Source: Xestospongia bergquistia
Lineage: Eukaryota > Porifera > Demospongiae > Haplosclerida > Petrosiidae
DNA: 64,000 nt
Assembly (NCBI GenBank): GCA_963965975.1
Contig: OZ014412.1
Coordinates: forward strand, 6,698,501-6,762,500
Reading direction: 5' to 3'
A program made the position numbers and the translations under genes. Below are positions 22 to 64,000 of this stretch, one piece after another; position 1 is the first letter of the stretch; each line of letters begins with the position of its first letter. Below the pieces are notes generated by a model. The model did no database searches and was not told where the DNA came from. It saw only the letters and a program-made list of their open reading frames with translations.

Positions 22-1761
22 AGTTGTCAAACTTTCCAGTCCTAACTTGAATTATCTCATAATTGTAGGGGCTGCCATTATGTACACATGTGTCTATTTC
101 TATGTGCACACCTCAACAGTAATGGATGTACAGACTGCTTTCTGTAATGTAAGATTATCACATAATGATCATACTCCTACTTCCAGATTTGTTCTATAAT
201 AAATTATTGTATTGCTTTATCTTTTAATCAATGATCCATTCTTAATTTCCACATAGATCAGATTCTGGTTGTTCTTTTTAGGATACTCTGTCTGTTTTGC
301 TGTCATTCTTTCCAAAACATGGAGAGTCTATTATATTTTTTATAATCCAAAGCCTAATAAGAAGGTTAATCACTAAGTTATAAAATGGTATCTTAGTAAT
401 CTCTCCTTCTTCCTCTCTCACACACACACAGGCACTAAAAGATTGGGTTTTATTTGTTCAAGTATTAGTTATAGTATCTATTGATTTGATTATTATTGCC
501 ATTGGATCTGCCATTCCTCAGTCACGACTGATAGCTACCAGAATAAGAGATACTCAACATCCAGAAGATATAACGGTATACTAAATTTTATCTATCTTCA
601 CAAAATGTTAATAATGATTGTGTCTGTCATGTAACAGAAAAGTTTTTCAATACAAGAGTCTTTCAAAATAATATAACAGATTTATTGGATAAGCTGACAA
701 ATTTACTTATATTATTACTAGATAATCAGTCAATTAGCACATTAATTTGTTTAACTTTTAAAATTGAGCAAATACTGAAATATAGCAGATAATAGTAACA
801 CACATTTGAGCATGAGTCATAATTTTTCTTATAATTAGAACATATGCATGCATGTATTTTGGCAACTTAATTTTTGGCCTCTAATTAAGAGGATCCTTAC
901 CAATTATTTTCCATTTGATAAGTAACTATTATACTAAATATGTTAATACTATTTCTTTTTCTATACATTATCTAGGATGAAGGTATTTTTGAAAAAAACT
1001 TCATCTATGTGTGTGCTCAAAGTGGATCACAAATTTGGCTAGCAGTCTCCTTTACATACAAAGCATTGTTACAACTAGTAGCAATATTTATGGCATTTCA
1101 TATTCGTCGTGTTAAAGTTAAAGCTCTGAATGACTCAAAGGAAATAGCTGTCATTATCTACATCAACAGTATTATACTTGCAGTGTTAGCAGTGACACAG
1201 TTTGCTCTTGAAAATTATCATGATGCATATGCTGCCATGTTTGGACTAGCTCTACTGGTAGATGCAACTCTGTTCTTAGGACTCATGTTCATTCCAAAAG
1301 TAAGAGTCATTTCCATTAAGTTTATGTTACTTTTAAAGCAAGATTTTAATTAATGATTTCATTTCTCAAACCTCTTATTTATTTTATTTTATGCTGACTC
1401 AACAGCTTCTCTTCTTATAAAGACTATATAACCCAAGCCATAATTCAATTGTTTTAATTATATCTTGACAGATGGTTAGTTTATATAATGATCCAACTGG
1501 AGAGAAAGTCCTCACTAGTCATTCCTTACCTTCTTCCTATCCAACAAATAATACTACTAGTGAGTCACCTGAGGAGACTATCAGTGGTCTACGAGCTAGA
1601 ATAAAAGAACTGGAGTCTATGCTCTCCACTAAAGTGGTAAGTATATGTGAAACTATTCATGTCATATACTAAGAGCTGTTTATTTGTACATATATAAATA
1701 CTATGTATTATACTATAATGATATTATCATCTCAAATATATAGCTGGAGTCTACAACTTAA
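22..1761 (+). CDS. GABA-B-like receptor copy A, 3' part (TM2 to C terminus)
   Basis: Only the last six exons lie in the window: 22-148, 257-364, 432-575, 976-1299, 1472-1636, 1744-1761. They encode TM2 (from VVKLSSPNLNYL), TM3 (KTWRVYYIF), TM4, then TM5-TM7 in one 324-nt exon (IWLAVSF, KALNDSKEIA, FIPK), and a tail with the helical stretch ETISGLRARIKELESML before the stop TAA at 1759. Introns follow GT-AG and lengths equal those of copy B. KALNDSK and KTWRV resemble the GABA-B2 subunit more than GABA-B1 (recalled family motifs). Exon 11 starts with one base completing a codon split by the intron, so its donor exon is upstream of the window. No stop interrupts the visible exons. The ligand domain is outside, so ligand use cannot be judged. 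Confidence 0.9.
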
Positions 1762-2264
1762 TTTGATAAGAAGTTTGAAATGAGAATGAAAGACTGATGT
1801 AATACTTATTTGCTATATATATTTCTTCCTCATATAATATGTAAATCAGTTATGTATTTAGTAATTTTGTAATTATTATGTAACATGTGACTTTATTAAT
1901 TAAACAAGCAATTCAATTCATGAACATAAATAAAGTCATTTTGTTTTATTTTTGTTAAAATACACTATATGTAGTTATTTGTTTATCAAACATCTATTAG
2001 TCTATTAATAAAATCAAAATAGATGCATTAATTAATACACTATAATGAAACATTAACCAGCTGCTACAATATCATTATCACAATTTCTACAAAAAAGTAA
2101 AGAAATTTATTATGTACCATTTAATACAAATTTTAGAAGGAAAACACTTACTACTATAACTATTCCAATTTTTCAGACACAACCTACCTTATATATTATT
2201 AATATGTCATTACTTAATTCCATGCATTGTCAGCAAATTATTAAACCAATTGGATACCAGCACT

Positions 2265-2507
2265 AACTAAAATCAATTGTTTGATTTAACTAATACATGG
2301 TTATACTGGTTGTATATGTAAAAAGTTAAGATAGCATTATTTTGCCTATTAATGTATTATGAATTGAGTGTTTATGTAGTTACATAATCAGTAATCATTA
2401 GTAATCAAAACAGTATTATGTTTACTTTTGATCATAATAAGTTGTAGCATGTAATTTGTATTACCATATATTAGTAAAATCAACTAATCATTTTGTTACA
2501 GTGATAT
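2265..2507. repeat. Foldback (MITE-like) element, 5' of copy B
   Basis: The left side (near 2270, TCAATTGTTTGATTTAAC) is a diverged inverted copy of the right side (near 2465, CATATATTAGTAAAATCAAC, then TTTTGTTACAG). The same arms, better preserved, flank the elements at 21716 and 29615. The middle contains a run that also occurs in copy B intron 6 at about 6163 (AATCAAAACA then TATTATGTTTACTTTT). No coding capacity. Ends are approximate. Confidence 0.5.
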
Positions 2508-3082: not shown

Positions 3083-3224
3083 GCTTTTAAATTTGCAGAG
3101 AGGCATAAAAAGAAGGAACATCCCATTATCATCCACGACTTGTGTGAGCCACACCTTAAACAAAACTACCAAAAGTATACGGATTTACGGAAAGAGGAGT
3201 GTGATGTATACAGCTACTGTGACA

Positions 3225-3504
3225 ATGTTATCGTATCTTGTTATTGGCCTGCTTTGCTCTCTCCTCCATCTCTCTGTTGGTACTCACAGCAGTAATGAAG
3301 ACAAAATTCCTCTCCACTTTGCATATATTACCTCAAAAACTGGAGGTTTCGTTGCTAATGGAAGCATACCAATTGTTGATTGGTTATTGGAGATGATCAA
3401 TGAACGAGACGACATTTTGCAAAATTATACACTAAACCATACGGATGTATTGGATTCAAAAGTGAATATAAATAAGAATACTTTTTTTAACAATTTCTGT
3501 ATGC

Positions 3505-3593
<89 letters not shown>

Positions 3594-6500
3594 CATGTAT
3601 GTGTGTGTGTGCACATTAAGCCATTCACTTTAGAATGCAATCTCTTCTTACAGTGTGATCATACTACATCTTTAGATGCTTTCTTTCAACTATTTTGGCA
3701 AAGTAACACAACTTATGTGACATTACTAGGATGTGGTTGCTCACCAGCAACTATCCCTGTAGCAGAAACCAGCCATTACTGGAATATACCACAGGTATAG
3801 AATCCTATACTAATGAAAATAATGGCTTCTTTCTTTCTCCCCCTCAGATTTCTTTTACATCAGCTGCTAAAATTCTAAATGATCGTGACCGATTCAAAAG
3901 TTTTTTTAGAGTACTTCCTTCTTTTTATTATATTCCAGCATCAATATCCCAATTACTGAGACAATTTGGATGGAGAAAGATGGCTGTCATCACTCAGGAG
4001 GAGGATGTATTTCAAGCAGTGAGTCAAGTATTGGCTAAATTATCTGATACGTTTATTTTATAGTTACCATTTTGTCTACAATACTGATTTAAAATGTGTC
4101 AGAATGTTGAACCATATCCCATTAATTTTACAGTATTCTCTCTCTTTCTCTCTCCATCTTAGATTACCAGTGGTCTCAAATTCATTTTTGATTCACAGAA
4201 TCAGCTACTAGATTCATCTGTTACTTTTAAAACAAAAGTAAATCCATTTCCACATGATACAATATTTGAAAAAGTAAGTAATTATTTATTGGAAGTACAT
4301 ACAATTAATTAAGCAAGTTCATATATTTTGTTAATCATGTATCATTATTTTCCCTAGATAATTACAGGAAAGTATAGGATTATTTATATCAATACATATG
4401 AAGCATATGCTGCCAACATTTTGTGTGAAGTGAGTAACAAAAGATATCATAATATCATCACAACAATTAATGATAGAGCCTACTAAGTATTAGGTAGTAA
4501 ACAATAAAGGCAATTCCAATATATATATATACATAGTAGATGGATGGATGGATGGATAATGAAATTAAGATACTGTGGAAACTCTTGACTATAGAAATGG
4601 AACAATTTTTGTCTTAGTCATCATCATCACTATAATCCTTGCACAATAAACGTATGTATTATTACAATAATTACTCATTGCATGGCCAGTTTGCCAGGGC
4701 CTACTCAAAACATTACAAACTCAACTACATACAAATATAAGCATTTTCTTATTTGTTACTATAGGCTTACCACAGAAACATGTATGCTCCTACCTATGTC
4801 TGGATGTTACCAATGTGGTTTAATGATGGCTGGTGGAATAATACAGTTTACTCATCCTGTACAACAGAGAACATGATGGCAGTTGTTAATGGCACTTTAG
4901 GTACTGTACCTCATGGATTCTTCGTTATGGATAACAAAACAAGAAAAGCTATCTCTGGCCTGGTAAGAAATATTTAGTTATATGATTAGAGTTAGTATTA
5001 GTTTCTTATTAAAGCACTATATTCTGAGTTGGGATTTAGATGATGCCTTGTAAAAGAACATGAACTATGAGAACAACTATAGCATTTTCACTAATGTTGT
5101 TATTTGAGGAATGATGATATTGGAATAGGTGTTCTCATGTTGTTCTTTGTAATAAAGATAAAAATTGGTAACAATTACAATTTTGAGAGAATATTTATAT
5201 GATAACTCATACAGATAGCAACTCAAATGGAAACTGTACCATGTAGAATTGTCATATTTGATAGGCAATGCATGTATGTATTTAAAAGTAAAAAATTGAA
5301 CTCCCAGAGTTCTGGTGAAAGAGGTGACAGATTATTTTTGTCATTAGTAAAGCATTTGCTTGACTCATAAACTCTGATTTTCATGTTATAATATTATAAG
5401 TCCAGCTAGATCTTAATAGTATTAACTAATTACCATTTCTTCACCATTACTATATAGTTGTGTCATTGTGTTATGGCTGTCACTACATACATGCCTATTT
5501 AGAGAAGCCATACTGTTGAAGTATACCTACTATGTAGTGATATAGTACTTAGTAGTCAAAACATCATACGATGTGTATAACAACTGTAACTTCCTCTTCA
5601 CCAACTCATTACTCCAATCTTTCTCCACCATCATCACTCTACTCCAACCTTCCACCATTGGCTTCCTCTCTTGACCTCTTCACTTCAAATCTTATCCTAA
5701 TACATACAGCATTCTTCCTAAATTAGATAATATCTCTGCTATTTCTTTGTTCTATTCATTGTCTGATCCTATCTGGATTGTGTAATCTTTTGACATTTCA
5801 AGTCATGATGTATTACTTAAAAACTAGTTTTTTTCAGCTTGACTGTAACTATAATGTTGGTAATATCATTGTCTATGTAAAATTATTATTTTAATTGCCT
5901 TGAAGTATACATTTCTTTTAAAATCGTGACTTCTTTCTGTTAAGCTTAGACACTGTTTATAAAAAGTTCATTCATAATTGGCAGGTTAATGCCTGTCTTT
6001 ATCTCATGACAAACTGAATCATCTTATACACACATACGTACATACATATGTACATACATACGTACATACATACATGCATACATATATGCATATAATAAGT
6101 AACGGTTAAGACCAATATATAATGATTTTGTATAGATGAATAATCCACAGTATATTAATAATCAAAACATTATTATGTTTACTTTTTGTCCCAAATATAC
6201 AACCTTTATAACAACTATATATTGGCTAAATCAACCTATCAATTTTTACAGTATAAAGACACTGTTCACTCACATTTAGCACTTACTATTGCCTCCCTTC
6301 ATCTTGTGACAACATTCTTATCTCATAATCCATCCATTTTATTAAACCTTGTGATTTCAATGTCAATTACTTCCATATACTTCATCCTTGAAACTAAAGG
6401 TGATACTTTGCTTGATTTTAAAGGAATTATTAAAGACCCCACTTATTTTTCTCACTCTGGTATTTCATTCACTATTGATCTTGTTTCCTCCCATCCAACA

Positions 6501-9500
6501 TAGTTCCATTCTCATGTAATAGATCATAAATTCAATTATCACAGCAAATTTGTTTAAGCTATAATGCAATGAATCATTGCTTACCTCCCAATTCTCAAAT
6601 CCAAATTCTTGAAACTAATATAATTAGTAATCCAAAATAGCATGTGTTAATGTTGTTAATACTTTCATTTTACATGCAATGTAATTGACTATGAATTGGC
6701 AGTGATATAGGTCTGGCTTGATAGTATATTAGGCAATATCTCTTAATATTCTATTATAAAAGAGGACGCCCCTTTAACTAATAGAACTAATAATAAATAT
6801 CTCCTATTATGTTTTATATGAAAAGTATACTACTATAACTAATAGAACTCATTGTGTCCACTAAGAAACGGGTTATTTTCAGTAATACATGTATGTTTGG
6901 TACTCATGAGTATAATTATTTCTTAGAGAACTTCATGCACTTGATAAATGACAGAGAACCAGGCACTGTACTTTTAATCAACTTCACTTTTCTGTTCCAT
7001 CATTCTCACCACAAGTAACATTACTGTCTGTTTTCCCTAATAGACACCACAGGAGTTTTTAGACAACTATACTGCTCTGTTTGAACAGCCACGATACAAA
7101 TCTCAAAACCTAACCAAGAACGACGCTGTAGGACTGGTCCATGAGGGAATATGGTCATTAGCTATTGGACTTAACAATGCAGTGAAACGAATAGCATTGG
7201 GAAATGACAGTGGATGTGAGAATTTAACAGGAGAATTGGTACCTTTAGAGGATTTTGATTATACTAATGAAAGAGTGGGTTGTATTCTGAGACAAGGTTT
7301 TGCTGAAGTAAATTTTCTTGGAGTTACTGTGAGTTGTCCTGTTTTCTCTTGTATATAAATCAAGGAGTAGATTATCAAAGTATATATGTATTATACAAAC
7401 ATTCCTAGTTTGTTGTAATAATTATAGTTTTAAGAGTTTATATGTCATGTTTTGTGATTACATTTGATACTACAACACATATTATTTTAATATTAGGGTC
7501 CTGTTTATTTTACTGCAAATGGAGGTCGTCCTGACAATATTCATGATGTCAAACAGTATAGAATATCTGGTGGTAAGTCTATAACAAGAACTAGTTAAAT
7601 GTTGAATTCATTCTCCTGTAGATACAGTCAATCTTGATACAATAGCCTCTGTAACCATTGGGAGTAATTTCACTTTCAAAATGGGTGAATCTAACGCACG
7701 GATTTGGAAAGGTACAAATTAATATCATAATAACATTGATGGATGGTGATATGGCAGCATAAAAGATGTAAGAAGTATCCTAAGACAATGACTACAAATA
7801 ACATTATATTACATAAAGCACTTATTATGAAATATATTTGATTATGACTTGGTAAATGTATATGTAGCTCAAAGCTTGCACATAAGAAAGAATAACAAAA
7901 TTAAACATGTTCATATACATTTTAAATATTCATAAATTTTATTTAAATAATTAAAATTCAATAATGAGTCTTTTAATAACACAACAATGCCAAATGTATA
8001 GAACAAGGTATGGAATATGGACAATGACATAATTTGTTTAAATTAACCAGCAAAACACAAACATAATAACTTTAAAGCAATAAATATAATACATAATATT
8101 GTAGAAATAATAATAGTAATGCAGAAGTTATGTTTTGCTGTCATCGTAACCTGAATATTTGGGATTCCTACATCACATTTCAATTTTTTAAAAGGTATTT
8201 GTTACAAGCAAATGATTATAGGAAATTGAGATGTAGTCAAGAGAATATAGATATGACTTCATAAAATAGATATATAGTTTGTCATGTTGGTTTAATAGAC
8301 TGAGATCCCATCATTAATTTCTTCATTTATATGTATTGTAATATACACTATAAACCAGATACCAATTAGTCAAGATCCTTCAAAAACATATCAATATATA
8401 AGAACAGTTTATAGACACATCTAACATACTATACTATATAACTTACATATTATTACTATTATTATGTCACTAGATGGTACTCCTCCTTATGATGGTTTTG
8501 AAGTGGACACTATACACCAGAATCATCTAGCATTGATTATAATTTATGATATTGGAGCATTTGTTGGTCTCATCTTTGTAGCAGTATGTCTTGTATTTAA
8601 TATTGTCTTTAGAAATAAAAAGTCAGTAACTGGATATTGTACATCATCACTTGATTTTCCCTCCCTCTCTCCCTTCCACCCTCCATCTAATAGAGTTGTC
8701 AAACTTTCTAGTCCTAACTTGAATTATCTCATAATTGTTGGGGCTGCTCTCATGTACATATGTGTCTATTTCTATGTACACTCCTCAGCAGTAATGAATG
8801 TACAGACTGCTTTCTGTAATGTAAGATTATCACATAATGATCATTAATCCTCACTTCTATGATTTGTTCTATAATAAATTATTGTATTGCTTTACCTTTA
8901 AATTAATGATCCATTCTTAATTTTCACATAGATCCGATTCTGGTTGTTCTTTTTAGGATACTCTGTCTGTTTTGCTGTCATTCTTTCCAAAACATGGAGA
9001 GTCTATTATATCTTTTCCAATCCCACACCTAAGAAGAAGGTTAATTACTCAGTTACAAAATGGTATCTGATCAGTTAACTCTCTCTCTCTCTCACACACA
9101 CACACACAGGCACTAAAAGATTGGGTTTTATTTGTTCAAGTGTTAGTTATAGTATCTATTGATTTGATTATTATTGCCATTGGATCTGCCATTCCTCAGT
9201 CACGACTGATAGCTACCAAAATAAGAGATACTCAACATCCAGAAGCTACAACAGTAAACTAAATATTTTATTTGTCCTCACAAAATACTAATAGTTGTGT
9301 CTATCATGTAATAGAAACGTTTTTCTACAAAAGAGTCTCTTAAAATTTTATTTATTAGATAAGCAGATAAATTTTCTTATATTCTTACTAAATAGTCAGT
9401 CAATTAGCACATTAATTAAACAAATACAGAGTTATAGCTGGTTATAGTAGGAAGCATTTGAGCATGAGTCTTAACTTTCTTATTTATAGAACATTTGCAT

Positions 9501-10442
9501 GTATATAGCAGTCATGGTAGTGTGTTTTGGCAACTTTAATTTTGGCCTCTAATTAAACGAATCCTTATCAATTATTTTCCATTTGATAAGTAACTGTTAT
9601 ACTAAATATGTTAATATTATTTTCTTTTCTATACATTATCTAGGATGAAGGTATTTTTGAAAAAAACTTCATCTATGTGTGTGCTCAGAGTGGATCACAA
9701 ATTTGGCTAGCAGTCTCTTTTGCATACAAAGCATTGTTACAACTAGTAGCAATATTTATGGCATTTCATATTCGTCGTGTTAAAGTTAAAGCTCTCAATG
9801 ATTCCAAGGAAATAGCTGTCATTATCTACATCAACAGTATTATACTTGCAGTGTTAGCAGTGACACAGTTTGCTCTTGAAAATTATCATGATGCATATGC
9901 TGCCATGTTTGGACTAGCTCTACTGGTAGATGCAACTATGTTCTTAGGACTCATGTTCATTCCAAAAGTAAGAGTCATTTCCATTAAGTTAGTGTCACTT
10001 TTAAAGTGAATTTTTAATTAAAGATTACATTACTCAAACCTCTTATTAATTAGATTATTAAGCAAACTTAACAATTTCTCTTTTTTGAGACAATATAAAC
10101 TTTATTAACCAAGCCATACTTCAATTTTTTCTGATTATATCTTGACAGATGGTTAGTTTGTATAATGATCCAACTGGAGAGAAAGTCCTCACTAGTCATT
10201 CCATACCTTCTTCATATCCAACAAATACCACTACTAGTGAGTCACCTGAGGAGACTATCAGTGGTCTACGAGCTAGAATAAAAGAACTGGAGTCTATGCT
10301 CTCCACTAAAGAGGTAAATTTATGAAAAATCATTCCAATATATCATACACTAAGAGCTGTTTATTTGTACATATATAAATACTATGTATTATACTATAAT
10401 GATCTTATCATCTCAAATATATAGCTGGAATCTACAACTTAA
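3225..10442 (+). CDS. GABA-B-like class C receptor copy B (complete, 804 aa)
   Basis: Exons: 3225-3461, 3654-3794, 3848-4018, 4163-4273, 4358-4429, 4765-4962, 7044-7328, 7497-7572, 7622-7711, 8474-8621, 8694-8820, 8932-9039, 9110-9253, 9644-9967, 10149-10313, 10425-10442. Residues 1-22 are a signal peptide (MLSYLVIGLLCSLLHLSVG). Residues 23-460 form a Venus-flytrap domain with GCGCSPATIPVAE, RFKSFFRVLPS, NMYAPTYVW and HEGIWSLA, plus several N-glycosylation sites. TM1 is in exon 10, TM2 in 11, TM3 in 12, TM4 in 13 and TM5-TM7 in exon 14 (residues 637-744). Cysteines before TM3 (TAFC) and before TM5 (YVCAQ) can form the usual class C disulfide. The tail is only about 60 residues and contains ETISGLRARIKELESML, a short coiled coil. 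All introns are GT-AG and all exons are open. The start matches the initiators of C and D; ATG at 3204 is an alternative. Family known to couple to G proteins as dimers; ligand and partner here are inferred only. Confidence 0.92.
3505..3591. repeat. (TA)n microsatellite in intron 1 of B
   Basis: About 43 TA units between exons 1 and 2, followed by a short GT run. Reading frames with repeated I-Y residues across it are artefacts. Confidence 0.95.
5440..5570. repeat. Single copy of the 160-bp intron-6 module, copy B
   Basis: Resembles the unit repeated 3.8 times at 18301-18906 in copy C: ATAGTTGTGTCATTGTG, then AGAGAAGCCATA, then AGTAGTCAAAACA. It directly precedes the LINE relic, as in C and D. 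Confidence 0.6.
5585..6540 (+). mobile_element. LINE endonuclease-domain relic in intron 6 of B
   Basis: Homologous to the better preserved relic in C. Near 6360 it keeps the bases for DFNVNY, and near 6440-6490 a stretch reading KDPTYFSHSG then FTIDLV, typical of the C-terminal half of an apurinic-type (APE) LINE endonuclease. It is broken by frameshifts, by CATA-type simple repeats at 6030-6090, and by a foldback insertion flanked by a repeated piece of the LINE. No reverse transcriptase was seen. Confidence 0.6.
6100..6252. repeat. Foldback element fragment inside the LINE relic of B
   Basis: The right end (ATATATTGGCTAAATCAAC, then ATTTTTACAG) matches the right arms at 29823 and 21908. 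The left arm is weak (GGTTAAGACCAATATATAATG). LINE-like sequence resembling ATCTCATGACAA lies on both sides, suggesting insertion into the LINE with some duplication. Confidence 0.4.
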
Positions 10443-11055: not shown

Positions 11056-11056
11056 G

Positions 11057-11096: not shown

Positions 11097-11360
11097 CAAC
11101 AATAGTTTTGTCAATGTAATCCTTATTTCACTTTGTTTTCTTTATTTTCTTGTTTTTGTTTATGATTGTTGCTGGTGTTCTTGTTGTTATAATAATAATA
11201 ATAATAATGATATCATCCTCCATGCATTCATAGCTACAAAGATTGGAGACATAATTAATAGCATGTCAATGGCTGAATTGAGACATATCAATCATTGATA
11301 TAACACTGCAGATATGATCTCATTTGACATGCTAGAATCAAGAGTATCCATGATGTAAAG

Positions 11361-12655
11361 TTGCCCTTTTTCCCTTGTATATAAAACAACGAGTAGATTT
11401 TCTAAGTATATATTTTTATTGTAAAATCATTCCTAGTTTGTTATAATAATTATAGTCTTAAGAGTTTATATGTCATGTTCTGTGATTACATTTGATACTA
11501 TAACACTTATTAATCTTTAATTGTAAAAGGTCATGTTTATTTTAATACAAATGGTAGTCGTCCTGACAATATTCATGATGTCAAATGACAAATTTGCTTA
11601 TATTATTACTAGATGTCAGTCAATTAGCACATTAATTTGTTTAATTTTTAGTTGTATAAAGTTGATCTAATACTGAAATATAACAGGTAATAGTAGGAGC
11701 ATTTGCACATGAGTCTTAATTTTTTTTATATAGAACATATGCAAGCATATAGCAGTCATAGTAATGTATTTTGGCAACTTCAATTTTGGTCTCTAATTAA
11801 GTGGACCAATTATTTCTCCTTTTATAAGTAACAATTAGACTACTTATGTTAATATTATTTCTTCTAGGATAGAGGCACTTTTGAATAAAGCTTCATCTAT
11901 GTGTGTGCTCAGAGTGGATCACAAATTTGGCTAGCAGTCTCCTTTTCATACAAAGCATTGTTACAACTAGTAGCAATATTTATGGCATTTCATATTCGTC
12001 GTGTTAAAGTTAAAGCTCTCAATGACTCAAAGGAAATAGCTGCCATTATCTATATCAACAGTATTATACTTGCAGTGTTAGCAGTGACACAGTTTGCTCT
12101 TGAAACTTATCATGATGCATATGCTGCTATGTTTGGACTAGCTCTACTGGTAGATGCAACTCTGTTCTTAGGACTCATGTTCATTCCAAAGGTAAGACTA
12201 ATTTCCATTAAGTTAGTACCACTCTTAAAGCAAGATTTTAATTAAGGATTTCAAACTTTTTATTAATTTTATATTAAGCTGACTTCACAGCTCTCTTATA
12301 GAGTCTATAGAGACTATATATAAACAAGCCATAATTCAATTTTTTCTGATTATATCTTGACAGATGGTTAGTTTATATCATGATCCAACTGGAGAGAAAG
12401 TCCTCACTAGTCAAACTTACCTTCTTCCTATCCAACCAATAATACCACTATTAGTGAGTCACCTGAGGAGACTATCAGTGGTCTACAAGCTAGAATAAAA
12501 GAACTGGAGTCTATGCTCTCCACTAAAGTTGTTAGTATATGAAAAACTATTCATGTCATATACTAAGAGCTGTTTATTTGTATATATATAAATGCTGTGT
12601 ATTATACTATAATGATCTTATCATCTCAAATATATAGCTTGAGTCTGCACCTTAA
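11361..12655 (+). pseudogene. Deletion-derived receptor pseudogene Bpsi (exons 8, 14, 15, 16)
   Basis: It begins in sequence matching the 3' half of intron 7, runs into an exon 8 copy (11529-11586) and, at TGATGTCAAA, jumps straight into intron 13 sequence, so exons 9-13 are missing. Exon 14 (11868-12191) keeps its full 324 nt and splice sites but has an in-frame TAA at 11886, seven codons in, where intact copies have a lysine codon. Exon 15 (12364-12530) has lost one base near 12410 (AGTCAAACTTA against AGTCATAACTTA), shifting the frame. Exon 16 is 12638-12655. The last two exons match C and D (LESAP ending), so it derives from clade 1. No upstream exons were found. Confidence 0.88.
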
Positions 12656-16153: not shown

Positions 16154-17072
16154 ATGCTATCGTATCTTGTTATTTGCTCCCTGTTACGTCTCTCTGTTGG
16201 TACTAACAGCAGTAATGAAGACAAAATTCCTCTCTACTTTGCATATATTACCACAAAGACTGGAGACTTCCTTGCTAGTGGAGGTATACCAATTGTTGAT
16301 TGGTCATTGGAGATGATCAATGAACGAGACGACATTTTGCAGAATTATACACTAAGTTATACACCTGATATACTGGATTCAAAAGTAAGTACAAAATAAG
16401 ATTCTAAGATAATAATTCTGTTATAGAATAATTTGTGTGTGTGTGTGTGCGTGCGCTCATTACTTTCTTACCTTATTTATTTCCTTTTTTGGCAATAATT
16501 GCTGTTTTCTTTCATTATACATTGCTAACTCAATTATATGTGCAATGCTATCTCTTTCTTACAGTGTGATCATACTGCATCTTTAGATGCTTTCTTTGAA
16601 CTATTTTGGAACAGTAACACAACTTATGTGACATTACTAGGATGTGGTTGCTCACAAGCAACTATCCCTGTGGCAGAAACCAGCCATTACTGGAATATAC
16701 CACAAGTAAAATCTGACTCCATGTGTATACTCAATAATATATATATATATATATCTCTTAGATTGCTTTTGCAGCAGCTGCAAGCATTTTGAATGATCGT
16801 CAACGATTCAAAAGCTTTTTTCGAGTACTACCCTCTTTTTATTATATTCCAGCATCTATGGCTCAGTTAATGAGACAATTTAATTGGAAAAAGATGACTG
16901 TTATCACCCAAGAAGAAACCCTGTTTCAAGCAGTGAGTACTATAATGATTTCATGCCAGTTCTTACTAATTTGTAATTAAAGACTAGTATATTAAATTTT
17001 TGTCAAAGTGCGTAAGAATATTGAACTTTCATATATAAATTTTTCATAATTAGGTTGCCTCCCTTCACTCTC

Positions 17073-17144
<72 letters not shown>

Positions 17145-17149
17145 TCCCT

Positions 17150-17186
<37 letters not shown>

Positions 17187-22751: not shown

Positions 22752-22793
<42 letters not shown>

Positions 22794-26567: not shown

Positions 26568-26610
<43 letters not shown>

Positions 26611-34329: not shown

Positions 34330-34360
<31 letters not shown>

Positions 34361-35941: not shown

Positions 35942-35978
<37 letters not shown>

Positions 35979-48135: not shown

Positions 48136-48293
48136 ACTCATGTACATCCATGTGGTGAACTCCTATAATTAACACTGTAGGGGAGCATTAAACACCTCCG
48201 TATACTTGGACAATAAAAATTAATAATCAAGTGGGAAAGATCATATCTATAAAGCTGTCTACGAGTCTTTTAATTTTCCAAATAACAGTAACA

Positions 48294-51200: not shown

Positions 51201-54200
51201 AAGGAAATCATCATGACTCTATGATAAGACATGTCTACAGACTATTTTCAATACAATATTATCTTATAACGTAGAGGAACATAATTTGTGTATCAGTTAG
51301 CCTCACATGAGTAGTTTGTTATTAGTTTTGTAATCTAATTTATACAGACGCAAACTGAAGTATTATTTTTACAAGTCTGTTTCTTTAATATGAACTAGTT
51401 TGATAAACACTATTTATTGACAATAACCAAATGTATATGTCCTGAGAATTTCAGTTATGTTTTACTAGTCTCAGATAGATAATAAACACAACCATATTCA
51501 TGAATTAACTACTTTCTCTGATCATCAGATAACAAAGAAACATAATGTAAAGAACATTGTATATTTGTATATATTTGATCTAATGTTAAATTCTATAGTG
51601 AAATATCTATATAGTGGAAACCACCTTTGTTATAAAGGTGTTTCCTCAATAGAGTGATTTACAATGCTGTATGAATATTACTATAATGTATAATGTAATG
51701 ATCAGTCAGCATCTGTAGTTTGACTTTTACATACTTTTAACTTAAAATCTAAAATAAAATAACATAAAATCTGTCACTCAGTAACTGAAATTTTAAATAG
51801 GAGTAGTTGTCATTTTAAGATAATCTCCATCTAATCCTTATCTAATTAACTTCAAGCTACTATCACATCTCTATCTCTGTATGTCTAATTTCTAACTAAT
51901 TATATACCTCAATTATTGTCATATTTCTCTTCCTGTAGACACCACAGCAGTTTTTAGACAACTATACTGCTCTACTACAGGAGCAACGATATCAAAATTT
52001 AAATTTAACTGAGCTTAGTTTTGGAGCAGTTACCTTTGACACAGTATGGTCTATGGCTATTGGACTTGACAATGCAATGAAACGGATAGTTGTGAGAAAT
52101 GACAGTGGTTGTGAGAAGTTTTCAGGAGATTTTGTACCTTTAGAACAATTTGATTATACCAATGATAAAATGGGTTGTCTTTTAAGACAAGGATTTGCTG
52201 AAGTTAATTTTCTTGGAATTACTGTGAGTTGTAGGATAGATTTTAAGTAGTAACTATTTGTCTATTAGGAAATGTAAACTTTGTTATGTGCAATTAGTGT
52301 TTAGTCTGCATATTTTAGGGGGTGTGGATTAGTGGAATATAATGCTTGAAATATGAACTTCCTACTAAGTAATCATTATTTACATAAGTAAAAAATGAAC
52401 AATGACATTATGTACAGTGAATAACATGGTAGAATCCCATAGTAACTGTCATAGTGTTCACTGATACAAAGTGAATGTCACATTTTATTTTTGCTATGTA
52501 TATTCATTAAACTAATAGTTATATGTCCTTTAATATCATAACTGAGAAGTGTACATGTGACAACTTAAAAATATATATGACAACTTAAAAATATTTTTAG
52601 ACGTAACTGCTGAGTGACTGTTATATTTCTGTTTAGAGATATAGTTTGGTAAATCTTTGTATAGTGAATGCTATACATACAAGTACCATTAAATTACTCT
52701 TTTGATTCCTTGTTAATAATAACATTATTATTATCATGTTGTATCTGAAACTATAGTTAGTATTTCTGGTTTGCCAGGAACAGTGAGTAGTATATGAAGT
52801 TCCAAGCAAAGATACAGTGTATTTCCTTTCCCAGTATAATCATTTCTATATGCATGTGTTGTTCTTATTACTTTTTTTAATATAAGATTTTAACAACATA
52901 TATAATAAAAATTTTTGAATATTCTAGCATTGTTACACTATTTCTCATCAATCTTCACTCTTATAATAGGGTTCCATTATGTTTGACAGAAATGGTAGTC
53001 GTTTTGACAATGTTCTTCTTGTCAGACAATACAGAATATCTGATAGTAAGTGTCTATGGCATAACTTGATCTGTAGTATTGACTTCATTTCTTCCTATAA
53101 AGCCAGAAATATGTCCATTTTCCGAGAGACAGTAGCTTATATAACTATTGGTGCAAATGAGACTAGCTTTCAATTCAAACGTGGTGAATCTAATGAACGA
53201 ATTTGGAAAGGTATATATTATAATATCTCATAGTTACATGCACCACAAATGCCTCATCATAATAGTACATTAAAGACATTTTGTTACTAGTATTAATATT
53301 TATCTCTGATAGAGGACACACCTTTAGTTAGGAACCCCACCTAGTTATAACAAATGTGATCTCTCAGCTTAAAATGTATAATATATTCTGCCATATTGCT
53401 TATAGTACAGACAACTTATTCTACTTGTATCACTATACTTTATCCCTTAGATGGTACTCCTCCTTATGACGGTTTTCCGGAGGAGACTATACATCAAAAT
53501 CATGTAGCTTTGATTATCATTTACAATATTGCTGTATTTGTTGGTCTCATCTTCGTAGCAGTATGTCTTGTATTTAATATTGTCTTTAGAAATAAAAAGT
53601 CAGTAATTAGATATTATATATGTTAGTTTGATTCTCTCTTCCTTCCTCCATCCCTCCTTCTTTCTATAGAGCTGTCAAACTTGCCAGTCCTAATTTGAAT
53701 TATCTTATAATTGTAGGGGCTGCTCTCATGTACATATGTGTCGATTTCTTTGTACACTCCTCAACAGTAATGGATGTACAGACTGCTTTCTGTAATGTAA
53801 TATTATAATACATTCATTTTGTCACCCAATTATAAATTACTGGGACTTTTCAAATTGACACGTATATCATATCCTTTTGAAATTGGCATGAACATCACTC
53901 AATCTTTTTAAACATTAAATTCCTAATTCCTAATCAGTAATACTTCATATGATGTCTTTGTCAGGCTTTTAAAGTTGATAGCAGACTGATTAGATTTTTC
54001 AAAGATTATTTCTTGTAATAACCCTAACACTTTGTCACACAGATTCGATTCTGGTTGTTTTCTTTGGGATATACTCTTTGTTTTGCTGTCATTCTTTCTA
54101 AAACATGGAGAGTTTATTACATCTTCTATAATCCAACTACTCAAAAGAAGGTTTGTTGCTTATTAACAAGATAGTGCTCTACAAACTCTTTTTTTCTCAG

Positions 54201-55799
54201 GCATTAAAAGATTGGGTTTTATTTGTTGCTGTGTTAGTTATAGTGGCTATTGATTTGATCATTATTTTAGTTGGATCTGTCATTCCTCAATCACAACTGA
54301 TAGCTACAGAAAAAACAGACACACAGCATCCACAGACAACAACGGTAAGTAATTCCCATATGCTATATGTTATATATTTGTTTGCTATGCAATCAAGCAC
54401 AATAATCTGAAATTTAAAATTAATAGTTACAAAGTCATTGCCAGTCACTTCTTTCTATAGTTCATATAACACTAGAATAAAGCAATATGAGGCCTAGGAC
54501 ATGATCATATATGTTCAAAAAGAAACATAAGTATCTATTTATTAAAAAAATCTGTGGAAGAATGTGACGATGCTCGATTCAACAAGGGGGGCGGGTTCCC
54601 AGGTATGGTTGCCGGGGCGACTGGAATGGAACTGAAGCATGGGACCAATCAAATAAGACTATTTTAATTGCTAAGCAACTGAACAGTATTTAAAACACTG
54701 TTTAACTTTATTTAGTTTACTTCTGTAACCATTGATTTCAATATTATTCATTTCACTCTATATCATTAGTTCATTGAAAGTTAATAGTAATACGTTCATT
54801 ACAAAGAAATGCATAGATGAATTGAGAGAACAATTATGGATGGAAATTATTAAGCTATGTTTTCTTACTGTTAAATTTTTTTTCCTGCATTGTATTTAGA
54901 CTGAAGGTGTCTTTGTAAATAACTTCATCTATGTGTGTGCTCAGAGTGGATCACAAATTTGGCTGGCAGTCTCCTTTTCATACAAGGCATTGTTACAACT
55001 AGTAGCAATATTTATGGCATTTCATACTCGTCGTGTTAAAGTTAAAGCTCTCAATGACTCAAAGGAAATAGCTATCATTATCTACATCAACAGCATTATA
55101 CTTGCATTGTTAGCAGTGACACAGTTTGCTCTTGAAACTTATCATGATGTGTATGCTGCCATGTTTGGACTAGCTCTACTGGTAGATGCAACTATGTTCT
55201 TAGGACTGATGTTCATTCCAAAAGTAAGACTCATTTCCATAAATTATATAAACTTATGTGCACTAAATTTAAAGAACCAATTCTACTCCTATTTTATGAT
55301 CCAATTTTATTTACTAGAATCTGTATTTCATTTTTTATGTATATTTTTCTGAACAGATGGTTAGTCTATATCTTGATCCAAATGGAGAGAATGTTTTTAG
55401 TCATTCTCTGCCAACAAATCATCCAACAAATAATGGAAATACAACTGCTAATGAGTCAGCAGAGGAGACTATTAGCACTCTACGAGCTAGAATAAAAGAA
55501 TTGGAATCAAATAAAGTGACTGCACAAGAGGTAAGTATGACAGAGCACATATCTCAGGACACTAAATGTCTGGATATCCTCCATTAAGACCCTTCTAAAA
55601 CTAAACTTAGTAAGGAGGAACACTTTCCCAGTGTTAACTATAGAAATTGTAATCTGCTTCATCCCCTCTGTATATTTATCAACAATTTTGTTTCACACTA
55701 TTGGAAGTAAACATAGTAAAACATTTCTTTATTTAATTCTAGAACCATACTGAGCAGGGGTCAGTACCTCCATTAAAAATTGATGAAAAAGAAGTGTAG
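48294..55799 (+). CDS. GABA-B-like class C receptor copy G (complete, 827 aa)
   Basis: Exons: 48294-48530, 49221-49358, 49856-50026, 50102-50212, 50526-50597, 50828-51031, 51939-52223, 52970-53045, 53103-53210, 53451-53598, 53670-53796, 54043-54150, 54201-54344, 54900-55223, 55357-55530, 55743-55799. Signal peptide MYYCLVNCLFCSLFYLSVG. Ligand-lobe motifs GCSPATIPVAE, LNDRKRFRNFFRPLPS, TFDTVWSMA. Longest tail: helix ETISTLRARIKELES in a 174-nt exon, then NHTEQGSVPPLKIDEKEV. AACAG just before TAACAATG resembles an acceptor, as in H, so a 5' untranslated exon is possible. Intron 8 is only 57 bp and keeps the reading frame open. Nearly identical to H where both are visible. Intron 1 carries a 420-bp insertion that H lacks. 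Confidence 0.92.
48551..48970. mobile_element. 420-bp insertion with 8-bp target duplication in intron 1 of G (hAT-like)
   Basis: ATAGGAAC occurs at 48543-48550 and again at 48971-48978, on either side of the insert; H has a single ATAGAAAC at the matching place. The insert begins CAGGGTTGGGGTCAATTACA and ends AAAAATGTAATTG, so TCAATTACAT and ATGTAATTGA form short inverted ends. The middle is rich in GATTAC motifs. An 8-bp duplication and a CAGGG start fit a non-autonomous hAT element; the right end seems shortened. Confidence 0.75.
54558..54650. other. GC-rich islet in intron 13 of G
   Basis: About 90 bp (CAACAAGGGGGGCGGGTTCC, GGTTGCCGGGGCGACTGG, GACCAATCAAATAAG) stand out from AT-rich surroundings. 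A CCAAT box is present. Origin unknown: a regulatory element or a fragment of inserted DNA. H cannot be compared because the window ends first; F intron 13 has nothing like it. Confidence 0.4.
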
Positions 55800-59088: not shown

Positions 59089-59384
59089 ATGTATTCTTAT
59101 CTCATTATTTGTCTGTTCTGTTCCCTGCTCCATCTCTCTGTTGGTACTCACAGCAGTAATGATAACAAGCTTCCTCTCCATTTTGGATATATTACTACAA
59201 AGACTGGAGACTTCATTGCTAGTGGAGGTATACCAATTGTTGATTTGGCACTACAGATAATCAATGAACGAGACGACATTTTGCAGAATTATACTCTAAA
59301 GTATACAGATGTATTGGATTCTGGAGTAAGTGTACTCTATAGAAACTACACTATTACTGCAAAAAATCATATCACTCTGGTTGA

Positions 59385-59426
<42 letters not shown>

Positions 59427-62400
59427 GACTATTTGTAACAGTCTTGATATTTTTCTGGCATACTACTATGTGTGGAATTGTGTCAGCGAGATGTAACAAG
59501 TTTACACTGCCATGTATTCATACCTGCATGTCTGTATATAATAGTATATAAATGTATGTTACCCTTTAGTAGATTAATATATTGCATATTCAAAAATATA
59601 TACACCACTTTATTAGATATATCAACATATATTCTAGTCTATTAAATAGTGTACAGTAATCAAGTTGTTCATAGTGTTCATTTGCTTCTTATCCTAATTT
59701 TACTATTTACAACTATGATAATGATAGTATATCAACCTGTTCAGCAGATATTTTCATTTTTAGCAGTGTGTATGATCAATATCTCCATATTATACAGTAT
59801 TTGTTTTCTTACACACACAGTGTAGTCAAACTACCTCTTTGGACGCTTTCTTTGAGCTATTTCAAAGGAATACAACTTATGTGACATTGGTAGGATGTGG
59901 TTGCTCCACAGCAACAATACCTGTAGCAGAAATCAGCCATTACTGGAATATACCACAGGTAAATAAGAAGCAACAATAAATATATAAAATAAGAAACTTC
60001 AAACAAGTATGCATTCTCAAATTGATTTTGAAATTTAGACCTAAACAAACAAATTCAGTTTTTAAGTAAAATCATAAGTAGATTGACATCAATATAATTA
60101 TCACTTTCATCGTGCCAAAGAGAAATAGTGTGATGCCACTTCCTGGAGTTCAAAGACTTATTAGAGTATAACAATAACTGAGTGGTCTGGAAGGAATTAC
60201 AAACTAATGATCTCAAAGAGTTTACTTTTTCAGTGTTGTATTCAGGTTAAACCTTGGACAGCATACTTTAATGCTTAATGTTTATGGCTTAGGAAGCGAA
60301 ATCATTTTTGCAATATCCAAATCTAAAGCTATGACACTGGGCTTCTGTGGAAAAAGGATACACTTGTACTATTTATTCTACATATTGCTGATCGAATCAG
60401 TTTATTTAAATTCTACTGATTCACCATAGCAACAAATACTCCCTCAGTATGTCACTCAAGACTCAACAGGATAGTTTAATTATACTTGTGATATAGACCT
60501 CTAATTCTATGTTATCACAATAATAAAATTTTGTTGGTACACCAAAAATAATTAACTATACAACACACACACACACATGCACATAAACTTTTTCTCTCTC
60601 ACACTCAATATTGTAGATAGCTTTTGCAGCAGCTGCTCAAGTTCTCAACGATCGTAAACGTTTTAGAAACTTTTTTCGACCACTTCCGTCTTTTAATTAT
60701 ATTCCAGAGTCATTGGCTCAGTTGATGAGAAAATTTGAGTGGAGTCAGATGGCAATTATCACTCAGGAAGAGAGCTTGTTTCAAGGAGTAAGTATTTGGC
60801 ACATCATTTGAAATATGGAGCTCTTTAATTACAATTGTTTAAACTTTGTTCTTTCTTTTCCCTTGAGGTAACAATTGCTCTCAGTAAAATCTTTAAGTCA
60901 GAAAATTGGTTACTAGATTCATCAGTGTCTTTTAAAACAGGAGTAGATCCCTTTCCATATGATGCTGTATTTGATAGAGTAAGATAATTAATCCATAACT
61001 TGTATTTATTTGTGTTTACATTTATTTTGACATTTGTTTTCCTAAACAATAATTTGTATTATTAATATACATATATAATAAATTCATTTGACTGTTCCAA
61101 AGTTAGCCATATCTCGTGTAAACAATGCATTGTCATAAGGATACATATAAATTTGTGTATTATGAACATAATGAGGCCATTAAAGTGGTTTACAAGGTCA
61201 AGCTTTATGGGAATAGACTTTAATAAGTTCATTTTAAACAACTGTATGTCTACTTCATTTCCTTATTGTCTAATATTTTGATTTAGATGAGTGCAGACAA
61301 GTATAGAATTATACACATCAATTCATATCCTGAATATGCTTACCATATTTTGTGTGAAGTGAGTAACATACTAGACTATACAGTGGATGGTTGAATGGAG
61401 CTATGTATGTATATGTATATATGACCATAGTGATCACATTTCATGTGTAGTACCATAAATGTATTATTTATTAAGAACAGACAATTACTTACATGTTTGC
61501 CATTCCATGCTAACTGTATTGCTGAACTCTTACAATACATTACTCAAACTACCTAATATTATCTGCTATTACAGGCTTACTACAGAAATATGTATGCACC
61601 TACTTACGTTTGGATCTTACCAATGTGGTATAATGCTGATTGGTGGGATGATGTCATACCTGTTAACTCATCTTGTACAGTTGATGTTAGGTTGGCAGTT
61701 CTTAATGGTACAATAGGGACTGTCCCTGATGGGTACTTTGTTATGGAGAACAAATCAAGAGTGTCTTTCTCTGGACTGGTAAGATATGTACTATAATATT
61801 GTTTGTATGAAGTGTTAGTCATGTGAGTTTGTTAAACACATTTCTAAATTTAGAACTACATATGTCATATCTAATGATAGAACTACTACATGTTATATCT
61901 AAATATAGAACTTCTGTGTCATATCTAAATATAGAATTGTTGCCCATATGTAAAGCTATCTCCCACAGATTAAGCAAATCATCACAACTCTATATTTGTA
62001 TTTGGTGTGTGATTATATGTGTATATTACAACCAAATTATATTTATGAAAGCTATTGAGTTAACTAACTGTATTATAATAATTTACTATAATAGAATGCT
62101 TATGTCAATTATAGTATGAAGATTAAGCATTAATCATTTGTTAAGTCTAGTCATAACTCTCATATGACTGTTGTCTCTTAGATGTATTGGCAATGTATGA
62201 GATCAGGTGGGCACATTGTTTATGTGTGCATAACTTATATTTCCTTAATTGAGTATAATTTAGCCTCACATGAGTAGTTTCTTATTACTTTTGTAATCTA
62301 ATTTACACAGATGCAAACTGAAATATTATTTTCATAAGTCTGTTTCTTTAATATGAACTAGTTTGATAAACACTATTTATTGACAATAACCAAATGTATA

Positions 62401-64000
62401 TGTCCTGAGAATTTCATAGTTATGTTTTACTAGTCTCAGATAGATAATAAACACAACCATATTCATGAATTAACTACTTTCTCTAATCATCAGATAACAA
62501 AGAAACCTAGTATAAAGAACATTGTAGATTCAGTACATATGTTTGGTCTAATGTTAAATTCTAAAGTGAAATATCTCTATTGTGGACATTTTGGGACCTC
62601 TTAGAAACCACCTTTGCTATATAAGGGTGCCCTCAATAGAGAGATTTACAATGCTGTATGAATATTACTATAATGTATAATGTAAGGATCAGTCAGTATA
62701 TGTAGTTTTACTTACAAAGACTTTCAAATTAAAACCTAAATAAAATAATATAAAATCTGTCACTCATATACTGAAATCTTAAACAGGAGGGAGTGTCATT
62801 TTAAGATAATTCATATCTTATTCTTATCTATATATAATTCCTATCTATTCCTTATAACTTTAAGTTACTATTACATCTCTCACTGTATGTCCAATTCTAA
62901 CCAATTTCCTCAATTATTGTCACATTTCTCTTCATGTAGACACCACAGCAGCTTTTAGACAACTATACTGCTCTACTACAGGAAGAACAATATCAAAATT
63001 TAAATTTAACTGAACTTAGCATTGTAGCAGTTACCTTTGATACAGTATGGTCTATGGCTATTGGACTTGACAATGCAATGAAACGGATAGCTGTGGGAAA
63101 TGACAGTGGATGTGAGAAGTTATCGGGAGATTTGGTACCTTTAGAACAATTTGATTATACTAATGAAAGAGTGGGTTGTCTTTTAAGACAAGGATTTGCT
63201 GAAGTTAATTTTCTTGGAATTACTGTGAGTTGTAGGATAGATTTTAGGTAGTAACTATTTGTCTGTTAGGAAGTTTAAACTTTAGTCTGGATACTTTAGG
63301 GGGTGTGGATTAATACATATTTAATTAGTGATTGAAATATGAACTTCCTACTGAACAATGATTGTTTACATGAATACACTGCAAAAATGAGCAATAATAT
63401 TCACTACATAACATACAGTGAACAATGTGACAGTTGCCATAGTAGTTGCCTTAGTGTTCACTGGTACAAAGAGAATGTCACTTTTTATTTTTTTTGGTAT
63501 ATATATTCATTAAACTAATAAGTTATACAATCCTTTAATATCACAGCTGAGAAGTGTACATGTCATTATATGACAGCTTACAATTATTTTTTAGATATAA
63601 CTGCTGAGTGACATTTACATTTTTCTGTTTAGAGATGTAGTCTGGTAAATCTTCTTGCATAAGAATGATATACACATCATGAAATTGGTGTTTGACTCTT
63701 TGTTAGTAATATTGCTATTATCATGTAGCAGCTAAAACTATAGTTAGTACCGTCGTTAGGTTTGCCAGGAAACAATAAGTAGTATATGGAAGTTCCAAGC
63801 ATTGATACAGTGTATAGCCTTCCCCAATATAATTGTTGCTATATACATGTGTTTATCCTTTAAATTTTTTCACTATAACTTTCAGCATTAAATAATTAAA
63901 GATGAATAAATTTTCAATTTTCTAGTATTGTTATACTCTTTATCCTCCATCTTCACTCTTATTATAGGGTCCCGTTATGTTTGACAGAAATGGTAGTCGT
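59089..64000 (+). CDS. GABA-B-like receptor copy H, 5' part (exons 1-8, cut by window end)
   Basis: Exons: 59089-59325, 59821-59958, 60617-60787, 60868-60978, 61287-61358, 61575-61778, 62940-63224, and exon 8 from 63968 to the window edge. Signal peptide MYSYLIICLFCSLLHLSVG; GCSTATIPVAE (T where most have P or Q); LNDRKRFRNFFRPLPS; ADWWDDVIPVNSSC; TFDTVWSMAIGLDNA. Splice sites and exon lengths equal those of G, and long introns 4, 6 and 7 also match. The membrane domain lies beyond the window. No lesion was seen in the eight exons. The start was chosen as the ATG after CAGTAACA, as in G. Confidence 0.9.
59389..59422. repeat. (TA)n microsatellite in intron 1 of H
   Basis: About 17 TA units, at a place where G has none. 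Confidence 0.9.

What the first reader, a model, noticed from the sequence alone, without database searches (positions are those of the whole stretch)
22..64000. Head-to-tail array of at least eight GABA-B-like receptor genes with near-constant exon structure
Eight copies plus one pseudogene and two relic exons, all on one strand, fill the window, and it ends within copies on both sides, so the array is larger. Exons 3, 4, 5, 12, 13 and 14 have the same length in every intact copy (171, 111, 72, 108, 144, 324 nt). Motifs (KALNDSK, KTWRV, TPQQF, FIPK) look GABA-B2-like. A local expansion of this size in an animal that may lack neurons suggests use in chemosensing or environmental response; that use is inference.
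Basis: partly seen in the sequence, partly recalled or inferred. Interest (0 to 1): 0.75.

Follow-up and report, generated by a model that had tools for sequence, protein, structure and literature searches.

The report
Large tandem array of GABA-B-like receptors
An animal genome, probably a sponge's, carries a long row of near-copy receptor genes related to the brain receptor for GABA, but with several GABA-holding residues changed, which fits a known sponge expansion probably used to sense other chemicals.

Summary
The window is C2:6698501-6762500 of a 146 Mb genome. It touches eight head-to-tail copies (one with a 1-nt frameshift in exon 13), one broken copy and an isolated relic exon. In the 282 kb I read there are 25 exon-14 matches and 17 undamaged gene models; genome-wide, matches of this cluster run from 6.42 to 6.78 Mb. 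The products are class C GPCRs: flytrap plus 7TM, no cysteine-rich-domain match in the two scanned, nearest to GABA-B2/B1 among solved structures. In my tree human GB1 and GB2 are sisters and the array is a separate clade, so 'GABA-B-like' fits better than 'GABA-B2-like'. Several constant exon lengths are an old family trait shared with distant relatives. GB2-type G-protein contacts are largely kept. Of the GABA contacts of GB1, Ser130 and the Tyr250/Trp278 wall are mostly kept; Ser153, His170 and Glu349 are lost in 17 of 17, the Glu349 site being highly variable. GABA is an unlikely ligand. Large sponge GABA-B-like clusters are in print (PMC7385117): a new member of a known kind.

The parts
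1..1633 (+). c15, GABA-B-like receptor gene, 3' part (exons 11-15 at 22-148, 257-364, 432-575, 976-1299, 1472-1633); exons 1-10 lie upstream of the window
   Evidence: spliced alignment without frameshift or stop
3225..10313 (+). c16, complete 15-exon GABA-B-like receptor gene (a short 16th exon likely downstream)
11359..12527 (+). c17, broken copy: a piece of exon 7 next to a region with exons 14-15; frameshifts and stops
   Evidence: blastn blocks; model with 2 frameshifts and 2 stops; unmodelled exon-7 piece
16154..24012 (+). c18, complete 15-exon GABA-B-like receptor gene
25729..31964 (+). c19, 15-exon copy with one base fewer in exon 13 (30758-30900, 143 nt): recent pseudogene or assembly error
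32672..32761 (+). isolated relic of exon 1
   Evidence: tblastn hit outside every model, 50% over 30 aa, E 1e-5
33250..39121 (+). c20, complete 15-exon copy; the most divergent one (65-73% aa identity to the other 16), with mixed clade states
39976..45114 (+). c21, complete 15-exon GABA-B-like receptor gene
48288..55530 (+). c22, complete 15-exon GABA-B-like receptor gene
59089..64000 (+). c23, exons 1-7 and the start of exon 8; the gene continues to window-equivalent 66241 in L021
23335..23658 (+). exon 14 of c18 (324 nt), with the KALNDSK and FIPK-type motifs of the last transmembrane part; lowest between-clade synonymous divergence of the 15 exons
22307..22370 (+). intron 10 of c18 (64 nt): the one intron clearly conserved between the two clades among the 11 of 14 introns compared
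   Evidence: 78% identity against 58% for shuffles; the other 10 lie within 0.08 of their shuffles

Best explanation
[quoted passage not shown] Shown here: each undamaged copy has its own signal-peptide-like first exon, a flytrap domain, 7TM and a short C-terminal heptad segment; the copies arose by duplication, are on average under purifying selection, and keep most of the GABA-B2 G-protein contact residues checked. Also shown: the GABA-holding residues of GABA-B1 are only partly kept (Ser130 and the Tyr250/Trp278 wall), while Ser153, His170 and Glu349 are replaced by small or hydrophobic residues in every undamaged copy, with the Glu349 site highly variable. Inferred: the flytrap closes on small molecules other than GABA, perhaps carboxylates without a charged amine, each copy with its own preference, and the closed dimer activates Gi/o through a common 7TM module; exchange between copies helps to keep that module uniform. 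Inferred: the use is sensing of dissolved metabolites (food, symbionts, own tissue) to control canal contraction, feeding or settlement.
For: Gene structure: 17 of 25 anchored models have 15 exons without frameshift or stop. Domains: ANF_receptor + 7tm_3 and nothing else in the 2 copies scanned. Nearest solved relatives are GABA-B2/B1 (query c20). Mean dN/dS 0.40, 0.28 and 0.36 within clade 1, within clade 2 and between them. Flytrap more variable than 7TM: 62% of 454 against 48% of 283 gap-free columns vary, mean entropy 0.60 against 0.32. Pocket sites in 17 copies: S130 kept 17 of 17; Y250 16 of 17; W278 W in 14 and F in 3; S153 lost 17 of 17 (A/G); H170 lost 17 of 17 (I/L/V); E349 lost 17 of 17 (A/G/F/I/V), entropy at the 96th percentile of the flytrap. 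S153 is still serine in 4 of 4 distant relatives, so that loss is particular to the array among the sequences read. Pocket residues from PMC12499500, roles (Ser130/Ser153 hold the acid, Glu349 the amine) from PMC6429233 (passages). GB2 sites R577, N584, K589, L686, K690 and K513 identical in 17 of 17, K590 in 15 of 17. Published parallel: over 120 mGABA receptors in Ephydatia muelleri, one cluster of over 50, most expressed (PMC7385117, passages).
Against: No expression, ligand or coupling data exist here. Not every GB2 contact is kept: K586 is T in 10 of 17, S515 is A in 5 of 17, and I592 and M514 are L in 17 of 17. Pocket mapping rests on a sequence alignment across distant relatives, without a structure; the Trp65 site is not reliably aligned. 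Mean dN/dS is below 1 in all 15 exons, so there is no direct sign of positive selection for new ligands, and only some pocket sites are unusually variable (S130 invariant, Y250 at the 38th, W278 at the 58th percentile). E349 is also replaced in 4 of 4 distant relatives and H170 in 3 of 4, so those losses are not special to this array. 8 of 25 anchored models are damaged or fragmentary (two of them come from halves of one exon), so part of the array may be neutral turnover. The organism was not identified.
Confidence: 0.72

Rival explanations
1. The copies are true GABA receptors that serve paracrine GABA signalling in a nerveless animal, using a different set of pocket residues.
For: Sponges respond to GABA (Ephydatia, Tethya; reported in PMC10133484 and PMC11883242, passages); S130, Y250 and an aromatic at W278 are mostly kept.
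Against: The amine anchor E349, H170 and the second serine S153 are absent in 17 of 17 copies. The one C8 relative read keeps S130, S153, H170, Y250 and W278 (but has S at E349) and is the better GABA candidate of the sequences read from this genome.
Confidence: 0.12
2. The copies are mainly coupling subunits (GB2 role) that pair with a separate ligand-binding subunit; their flytraps bind nothing.
For: GB2-type residues are kept in 17 of 17 copies where human GB1 differs (R577, K513, L686, K690); a C-terminal heptad segment as in GABA-B dimers; human GB2 also lacks S130 and Y250.
Against: S130 is invariant and Y250 and W278 nearly so, unlike human GB2 (P, D, W), which suggests that a ligand site is maintained; a whole row of empty partners is hard to explain.
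Confidence: 0.12
3. Mostly neutral birth-and-death: the array grows by unequal crossing-over with little functional meaning per copy.
For: Broken copies and relics; no link between distance along the array and divergence within clade 1 (Mantel r -0.002, 2442 of 5000 permutations as high); mixed clade states in c20.
Against: 17 copies keep open frames over 15 exons with mean dN/dS well below 1; further GABA-B-like clusters recur on C9, C8, C7 and C6 and in other demosponges (PMC7385117, passages).
Confidence: 0.15
4. The array is partly an assembly artefact (collapsed or duplicated haplotypes).
For: One place on C13 is doubled letter for letter at an offset of exactly 223,000 (1000 of 1000 bases compared).
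Against: In the array the copies differ: nearest-neighbour nucleotide identity is 82.5-97.0% over the coding exons of 17 copies, 10 of the 11 introns compared have diverged to or near the shuffle level between clades and spacings are irregular.
Confidence: 0.04

Closest known systems
Metabotropic GABA-receptor-like clusters of the freshwater sponge Ephydatia muelleri (PMC7385117, passages)
   Same: Very large clusters of GABA-B-like genes in a demosponge; [quoted passage not shown] over 120 genes, one cluster of over 50
   Different: Another genome, 146 Mb here against 326 Mb; no sequence comparison with the Ephydatia genes was made here; the pocket and exchange analyses were done here
Vertebrate and insect GABA-B receptors (GB1/GB2)
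   Same: Flytrap + 7TM without a cysteine-rich domain, C-terminal heptad segment, most GB2-type G-protein contacts, S130/Y250/W278 of the GB1 pocket
   Different: S153, H170 and E349 lost in 17 of 17 copies; the array lies outside the human GB1/GB2 pair in the tree; many copies instead of two or three genes
GABA-B-like expansion of placozoans (37 in Trichoplax, PMC10133484, passages)
   Same: Lineage-specific expansion of GABA-B-like receptors in a nerveless animal
   Different: Separate clades according to that paper; not compared by sequence here
Amphimedon queenslandica glutamate-family GPCRs (PMC4302439, PMC10133484, passages)
   Same: Sponge class C receptors, most not orthologous to human ones
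   Different: 33 family members, and 21 GABA-B-like receptors, reported there; more exon matches were found in this genome, but exon matches are not gene counts

Membership tests
Class C (glutamate-family) GPCR | 7tm_3 domain with an N-terminal flytrap (ANF_receptor) | tested here: met
   Both proteins scanned (c20, c18; 2 of 17 models) match both families far above cut-off
GABA-B-like receptors | No cysteine-rich domain between flytrap and 7TM | tested here: met
   No NCD3G match in 2 of 2 proteins scanned
GABA-B-like receptors | Sequence nearest to GABA-B among class C receptors of known structure | tested here: met
   GABA-B2 1.2e-88, GABA-B1 6.6e-76, mGlu5 2.4e-25, GPR156 4.3e-19 (query c20 only)
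GABA-B receptor proper (GB1 or GB2 orthologue) | Grouping with GB1 or with GB2 in a tree | tested here: inconclusive
   GB1+GB2 sisters 99/100; array clade 81/65; the forks joining these groups are open; long branches (18 rows, 11 of 17 array models)
GABA-B receptor proper | GABA-contact residues of GB1 (W65, S130, S153, H170, E349, Y250, W278) | tested here: not met
   S153, H170 and E349 lost in 17 of 17; W65 not a tryptophan in 17 of 17 but poorly aligned; S130 17 of 17, Y250 16 of 17, W278 14 of 17 kept
GABA-B receptor proper | G-protein contact residues of GB2 | tested here: met
   Mostly met: R577, N584, K589, L686, K690 and K513 in 17 of 17; K590 15 of 17; exceptions K586 (K in 7 of 17), S515 (S in 12 of 17), I592 and M514 (L in 17 of 17)
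GABA-B receptor proper | C-terminal coiled coil | tested here: inconclusive
   I/L spaced 3-4-3 in all 17 tails by eye; the next heptad position is L in 14 of 17; no coil predictor was run
GABA-B receptor proper | Obligate heterodimer with an ER retention signal in one subunit | not testable with these tools
   needs expression
Sponge mGABA-receptor expansion | Clade with Ephydatia or Amphimedon sequences | not tested

The most novel reading that the evidence does not exclude
The array is a chemoreceptor repertoire in which one class C signalling module (7TM exons 10-11 and 14, kept alike by exchange between copies) is combined with a set of diverging flytraps that keep one acid-holding serine but have replaced the amine anchor of the GABA site. 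That would be an animal chemosensory system built from GABA-B-like receptors without neurons, and it makes testable ligand predictions per copy.
Probability: 0.3. Interest if true: 0.65.

Novelty: new member of a known kind. Interest (0 to 1): 0.36.

Why it matters
What the many GABA-B-like genes of nerveless animals sense is open. This array gives 17 undamaged natural variants of one receptor with a similar 7TM part and a more variable flytrap, so ligand specificity can be mapped by expression in cells. The pocket result argues against reading 'GABA-B' in a sponge annotation as 'GABA receptor'. The size and existence of such arrays are already in print, which limits the surprise.

Tried and rejected
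Rejected: constant exon length as a sign of recent or special origin. Four relatives on C9, C8, C1 and C6 share several of the lengths, so those are old; exons 4 and 5 do differ there (105/111 and 66 nt).

Rejected: 'GABA-B2' as an orthology statement.

Tried: linking divergence to position along the array. Mantel r 0.30 for 17 copies (217 of 5000 permutations as high) and -0.002 for the 12 clade-1 copies (2442 of 5000): no simple neighbour-by-neighbour duplication within clade 1.

Tried: identifying the species. No iGluR domain match was found, but no control genome rang either; a search for papers with Amphimedon primers gave nothing usable in its listing. The demosponge assignment stays an inference.

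Tried: RNA families in the window (0 matches) and NCBIfam for c18 (0 families; that library covers prokaryotes). Pfam on 9 of the 20 largely non-exonic open frames of 75 aa or more found no other gene; the other 11 were not scanned.

Not tried: structure prediction.

Cautions on the exchange evidence: low synonymous divergence in E14 could also come from selection on codons. Intron 10 is conserved beside E10/E11, also in c20 (less so in c24), so a functional intron element is not excluded. In c20 the synonymous measure points to clade 1 in exons 8 and 10 where the fixed sites lean to clade 2. In the leave-one-out control, c21 also carries clade-1 states (38, against 87 clade-2 states, spread over the exons), whereas c18 has no clade-2 state and c23 one clade-1 state; I did not test the evenness for c21.

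Full report
What is there. The window is C2:6698501-6762500 of a 146.46 Mb assembly in 21 contigs. I read one copy by hand and wrote a spliced aligner that requires GT/AG (or GCAA) splice sites, allows split codons, and charges for stops and frameshifts. I ran it over the window and its flanks, 282,000 bases in all (C2:6498501-6780500). tblastn of exon 14 gives 25 matches in this stretch, of which two look like halves of one relic exon. Of the 25 anchored models, 17 have 15 exons without frameshift or stop up to the conserved end of exon 15. The other 8: c19 has one frameshift (143 nt in exon 13), c01 two frameshifts and a stop, c02 four frameshifts; c03, c04, c09, c10 and c17 are wrecks or fragments (exon 13 of c19 shown). 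A genome-wide search with exons 13-15 adds three exon-14 matches on the minus strand at 6.422-6.443 Mb and a partial one at 6.783 Mb, so the cluster spans about 360 kb.

In the window. c15 (3' part), c16, c18, c19, c20, c21, c22 and c23 (5' part) are on the plus strand; c17 is broken; a relic exon 1 lies at 32672-32761. Modelled exons fill 27% of the window. Pfam finds no other gene in 9 of the 20 open frames of 75 aa or more that lie mostly outside the exons. From the end of exon 15 to the next modelled start (c03, c04, c09, c10 and c17 skipped) the distances are 0.7-14 kb, apart from one of 62 kb, c02 to c05, in which only the wrecks c03 and c04 were found. A short 16th exon probably follows exon 15 (read by eye).

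Exon structure. Across the 17 models exons 3, 5, 12, 13 and 14 are 171, 72, 108, 144 and 324 nt in 17 of 17; exon 4 is 111 in 15 of 17; exon 11 is 127 in 16 of 17, with the exon 10/11 boundary of c08 ambiguous. Four distant relatives on other chromosomes were modelled the same way (loci L023-L026). All four have exons of 108 and 324 nt and 144 or 147 nt for exon 13; exon 3 is 171 nt in three (the fourth model starts inside the gene, with 174); exon 11 is 127 nt in three and 139 in the fourth. Against full sharing, exon 5 is 66 nt in 4 of 4, exon 4 is 105 nt in three and 111 in one, and C9 and C1 split exon 7 in two. Their identity to the array in the search is 39-46%. The core of the pattern is therefore an old gene structure of the family, not a product of the local array.

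What the protein is. c20 and c18 match ANF_receptor and 7tm_3 and nothing else in Pfam. Against PDB chain sequences c20 matches GABA-B2 (1.2e-88) and GABA-B1 (6.6e-76) much better than mGlu5 (2.4e-25) or GPR156 (4.3e-19). A tree of the 7TM part (18 rows: 11 of the 17 array copies, 4 distant relatives, human GB1, GB2 and mGlu5) puts human GB1 and GB2 together (99/100), the array in its own clade (81/65), C9 with C1 and C8 with C6, with open forks between these groups and long branches for mGlu5, GB1 and several others. So it is GABA-B-like; assignment to GB2 is not supported.

Pocket and coupling. The GB1 residues that touch GABA are W65, S130, S153, H170 and E349 in lobe 1 and Y250 and W278 in lobe 2 (PMC12499500, passages). 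Ser130 and Ser153 hold the acid and Glu349 the amine (PMC6429233, passages). In the alignment of 17 copies, four relatives, GB1 and GB2 (human sequences checked against or copied from PDB output), S130 is kept in 17 of 17, Y250 in 16, and W278 is W in 14 and F in 3. S153 is A or G, H170 is I, L or V, and E349 is A, G, F, I or V in 17 of 17. The E349 site has higher entropy than 96% of flytrap columns, while S130 is invariant. W65 is not a tryptophan in any copy, but that end aligns poorly. Among the four relatives S153 is serine in 4 of 4, H170 is kept only in C8, and E349 in none; the C8 relative keeps S130, S153, H170, Y250 and W278. Among GB2 residues named for the Gi interface, R577, N584, K589, L686 and K513 are identical in 17 of 17 copies and K590 in 15; K690, named in that paper for the modulator site, is also kept in 17 of 17. 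Against this, K586 is kept in 7, S515 in 12, and I592 and M514 are leucine in all 17 (positions R577, K513 and M514 follow from the paper's fly-to-human offset). The tail has I/L at 3-4-3 spacing in all 17 (by eye).

How the copies evolve. There are two groups: twelve undamaged copies upstream (c00-c18) and four downstream (c21-c24), with c20 between them. Mean dN/dS is 0.40, 0.28 and 0.36 within clade 1, within clade 2 and between them, and below 1 in every exon (highest 0.85, exon 4 in clade 1). Between-clade synonymous difference is 0.168 in exon 14 against 0.367 in the rest; 0 of 5000 random 108-codon sets from the other exons are as low. Exons 11 (0.195) and 10 (0.256) come next. Intron 10 between them is 78% identical against 58% for shuffles, while the other 10 introns compared lie within 0.08 of their shuffles (introns 2, 6 and 9 were skipped as longer than 400 nt, some others rest on part of the 44 pairs, and c08 was left out). 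At sites fixed between the clades c20 has the clade-2 state in 48 and the clade-1 state in 13 over exons 1-12, but 4 and 17 over exons 13-15 (82 sites; 1 of 5000 permutations as uneven by exon). I read this as exchange between copies. Cautions: c21 left out of its own clade also shows 38 clade-1 against 87 clade-2 states (c18 and c23 do not); the per-exon synonymous measure disagrees for exons 8 and 10; the states are not polarised and c20 may be an early branch; selection on codons or on an intron element is not excluded.

Compared with what is known. Large clusters of metabotropic GABA-receptor genes in demosponges are in print: over 120 in Ephydatia muelleri, one cluster of over 50, with the suggestion that such receptors may take 'GABA and/or a range of organic acids' (PMC7385117, passages). 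Expansion in demosponges, calcisponges and placozoans is described in PMC10133484 (passages), and sponge-specific glutamate-family receptors in Amphimedon in PMC4302439 (passages). I saw no published pocket analysis of such an array in the listings, which cover open-licence papers only. The species here is not identified; a demosponge is likely from the receptor repertoire and the lack of iGluR matches (without a working control).

Verdict. A true and larger-than-reported array, a new member of a known kind, with a pocket result that makes GABA an unlikely ligand and a similar 7TM module throughout that fits a chemosensory repertoire. The chemosensory use itself is inference.

Noticed in passing
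own genome C5:6974168-7211837 (L027 = C5:7210701-7214200): A second, different class C array: 34 full-length 7tm_3 matches, mostly in long open frames, 31 of them without a stop inside, so apparently intronless. The one read has ANF_receptor, 7tm_3 and a weak sub-threshold NCD3G match, an mGlu/CaSR-type layout. Smaller sets of the same look lie on C3.
   Followed up: partly
own genome C13:3351601-3357300 and +223,000: Exon matches of this family recur at an offset of exactly 223,000 bases; 1000 of 1000 bases compared are identical, and an inverted partner is identical over 538 of 538 aligned bases. Probably an assembly duplication.
   Followed up: partly
own genome C9:1.17-1.20 Mb, C8:5.90-6.02 Mb, C7:3.06-3.33 Mb, C6, C1, C5:3.4 Mb, C2:11.6 Mb: About 50 further exon-14-like places of more distant GABA-B-like genes, several in rows (truncated list).
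   Followed up: partly
window 33250-39121: c20 has mostly clade-2 states in exons 1-12 and mostly clade-1 states in exons 13-15.
   Followed up: partly
window 22307-22370 and the same place in other copies: Intron 10 is conserved between clades while the other introns compared are not; exchange tract or functional intron element.
   Followed up: partly
window 18295-18908: 160-nt tandem repeat, 3.8 copies at 96%, inside intron 6 of c18; related units elsewhere in the array introns.
   Followed up: no
window 21743-21922: Inverted repeat with 68-nt arms, 88% complementary, in intron 9 of c18; a related inverted repeat near 29609-29867 in c19: possibly a small transposon remnant.
   Followed up: no
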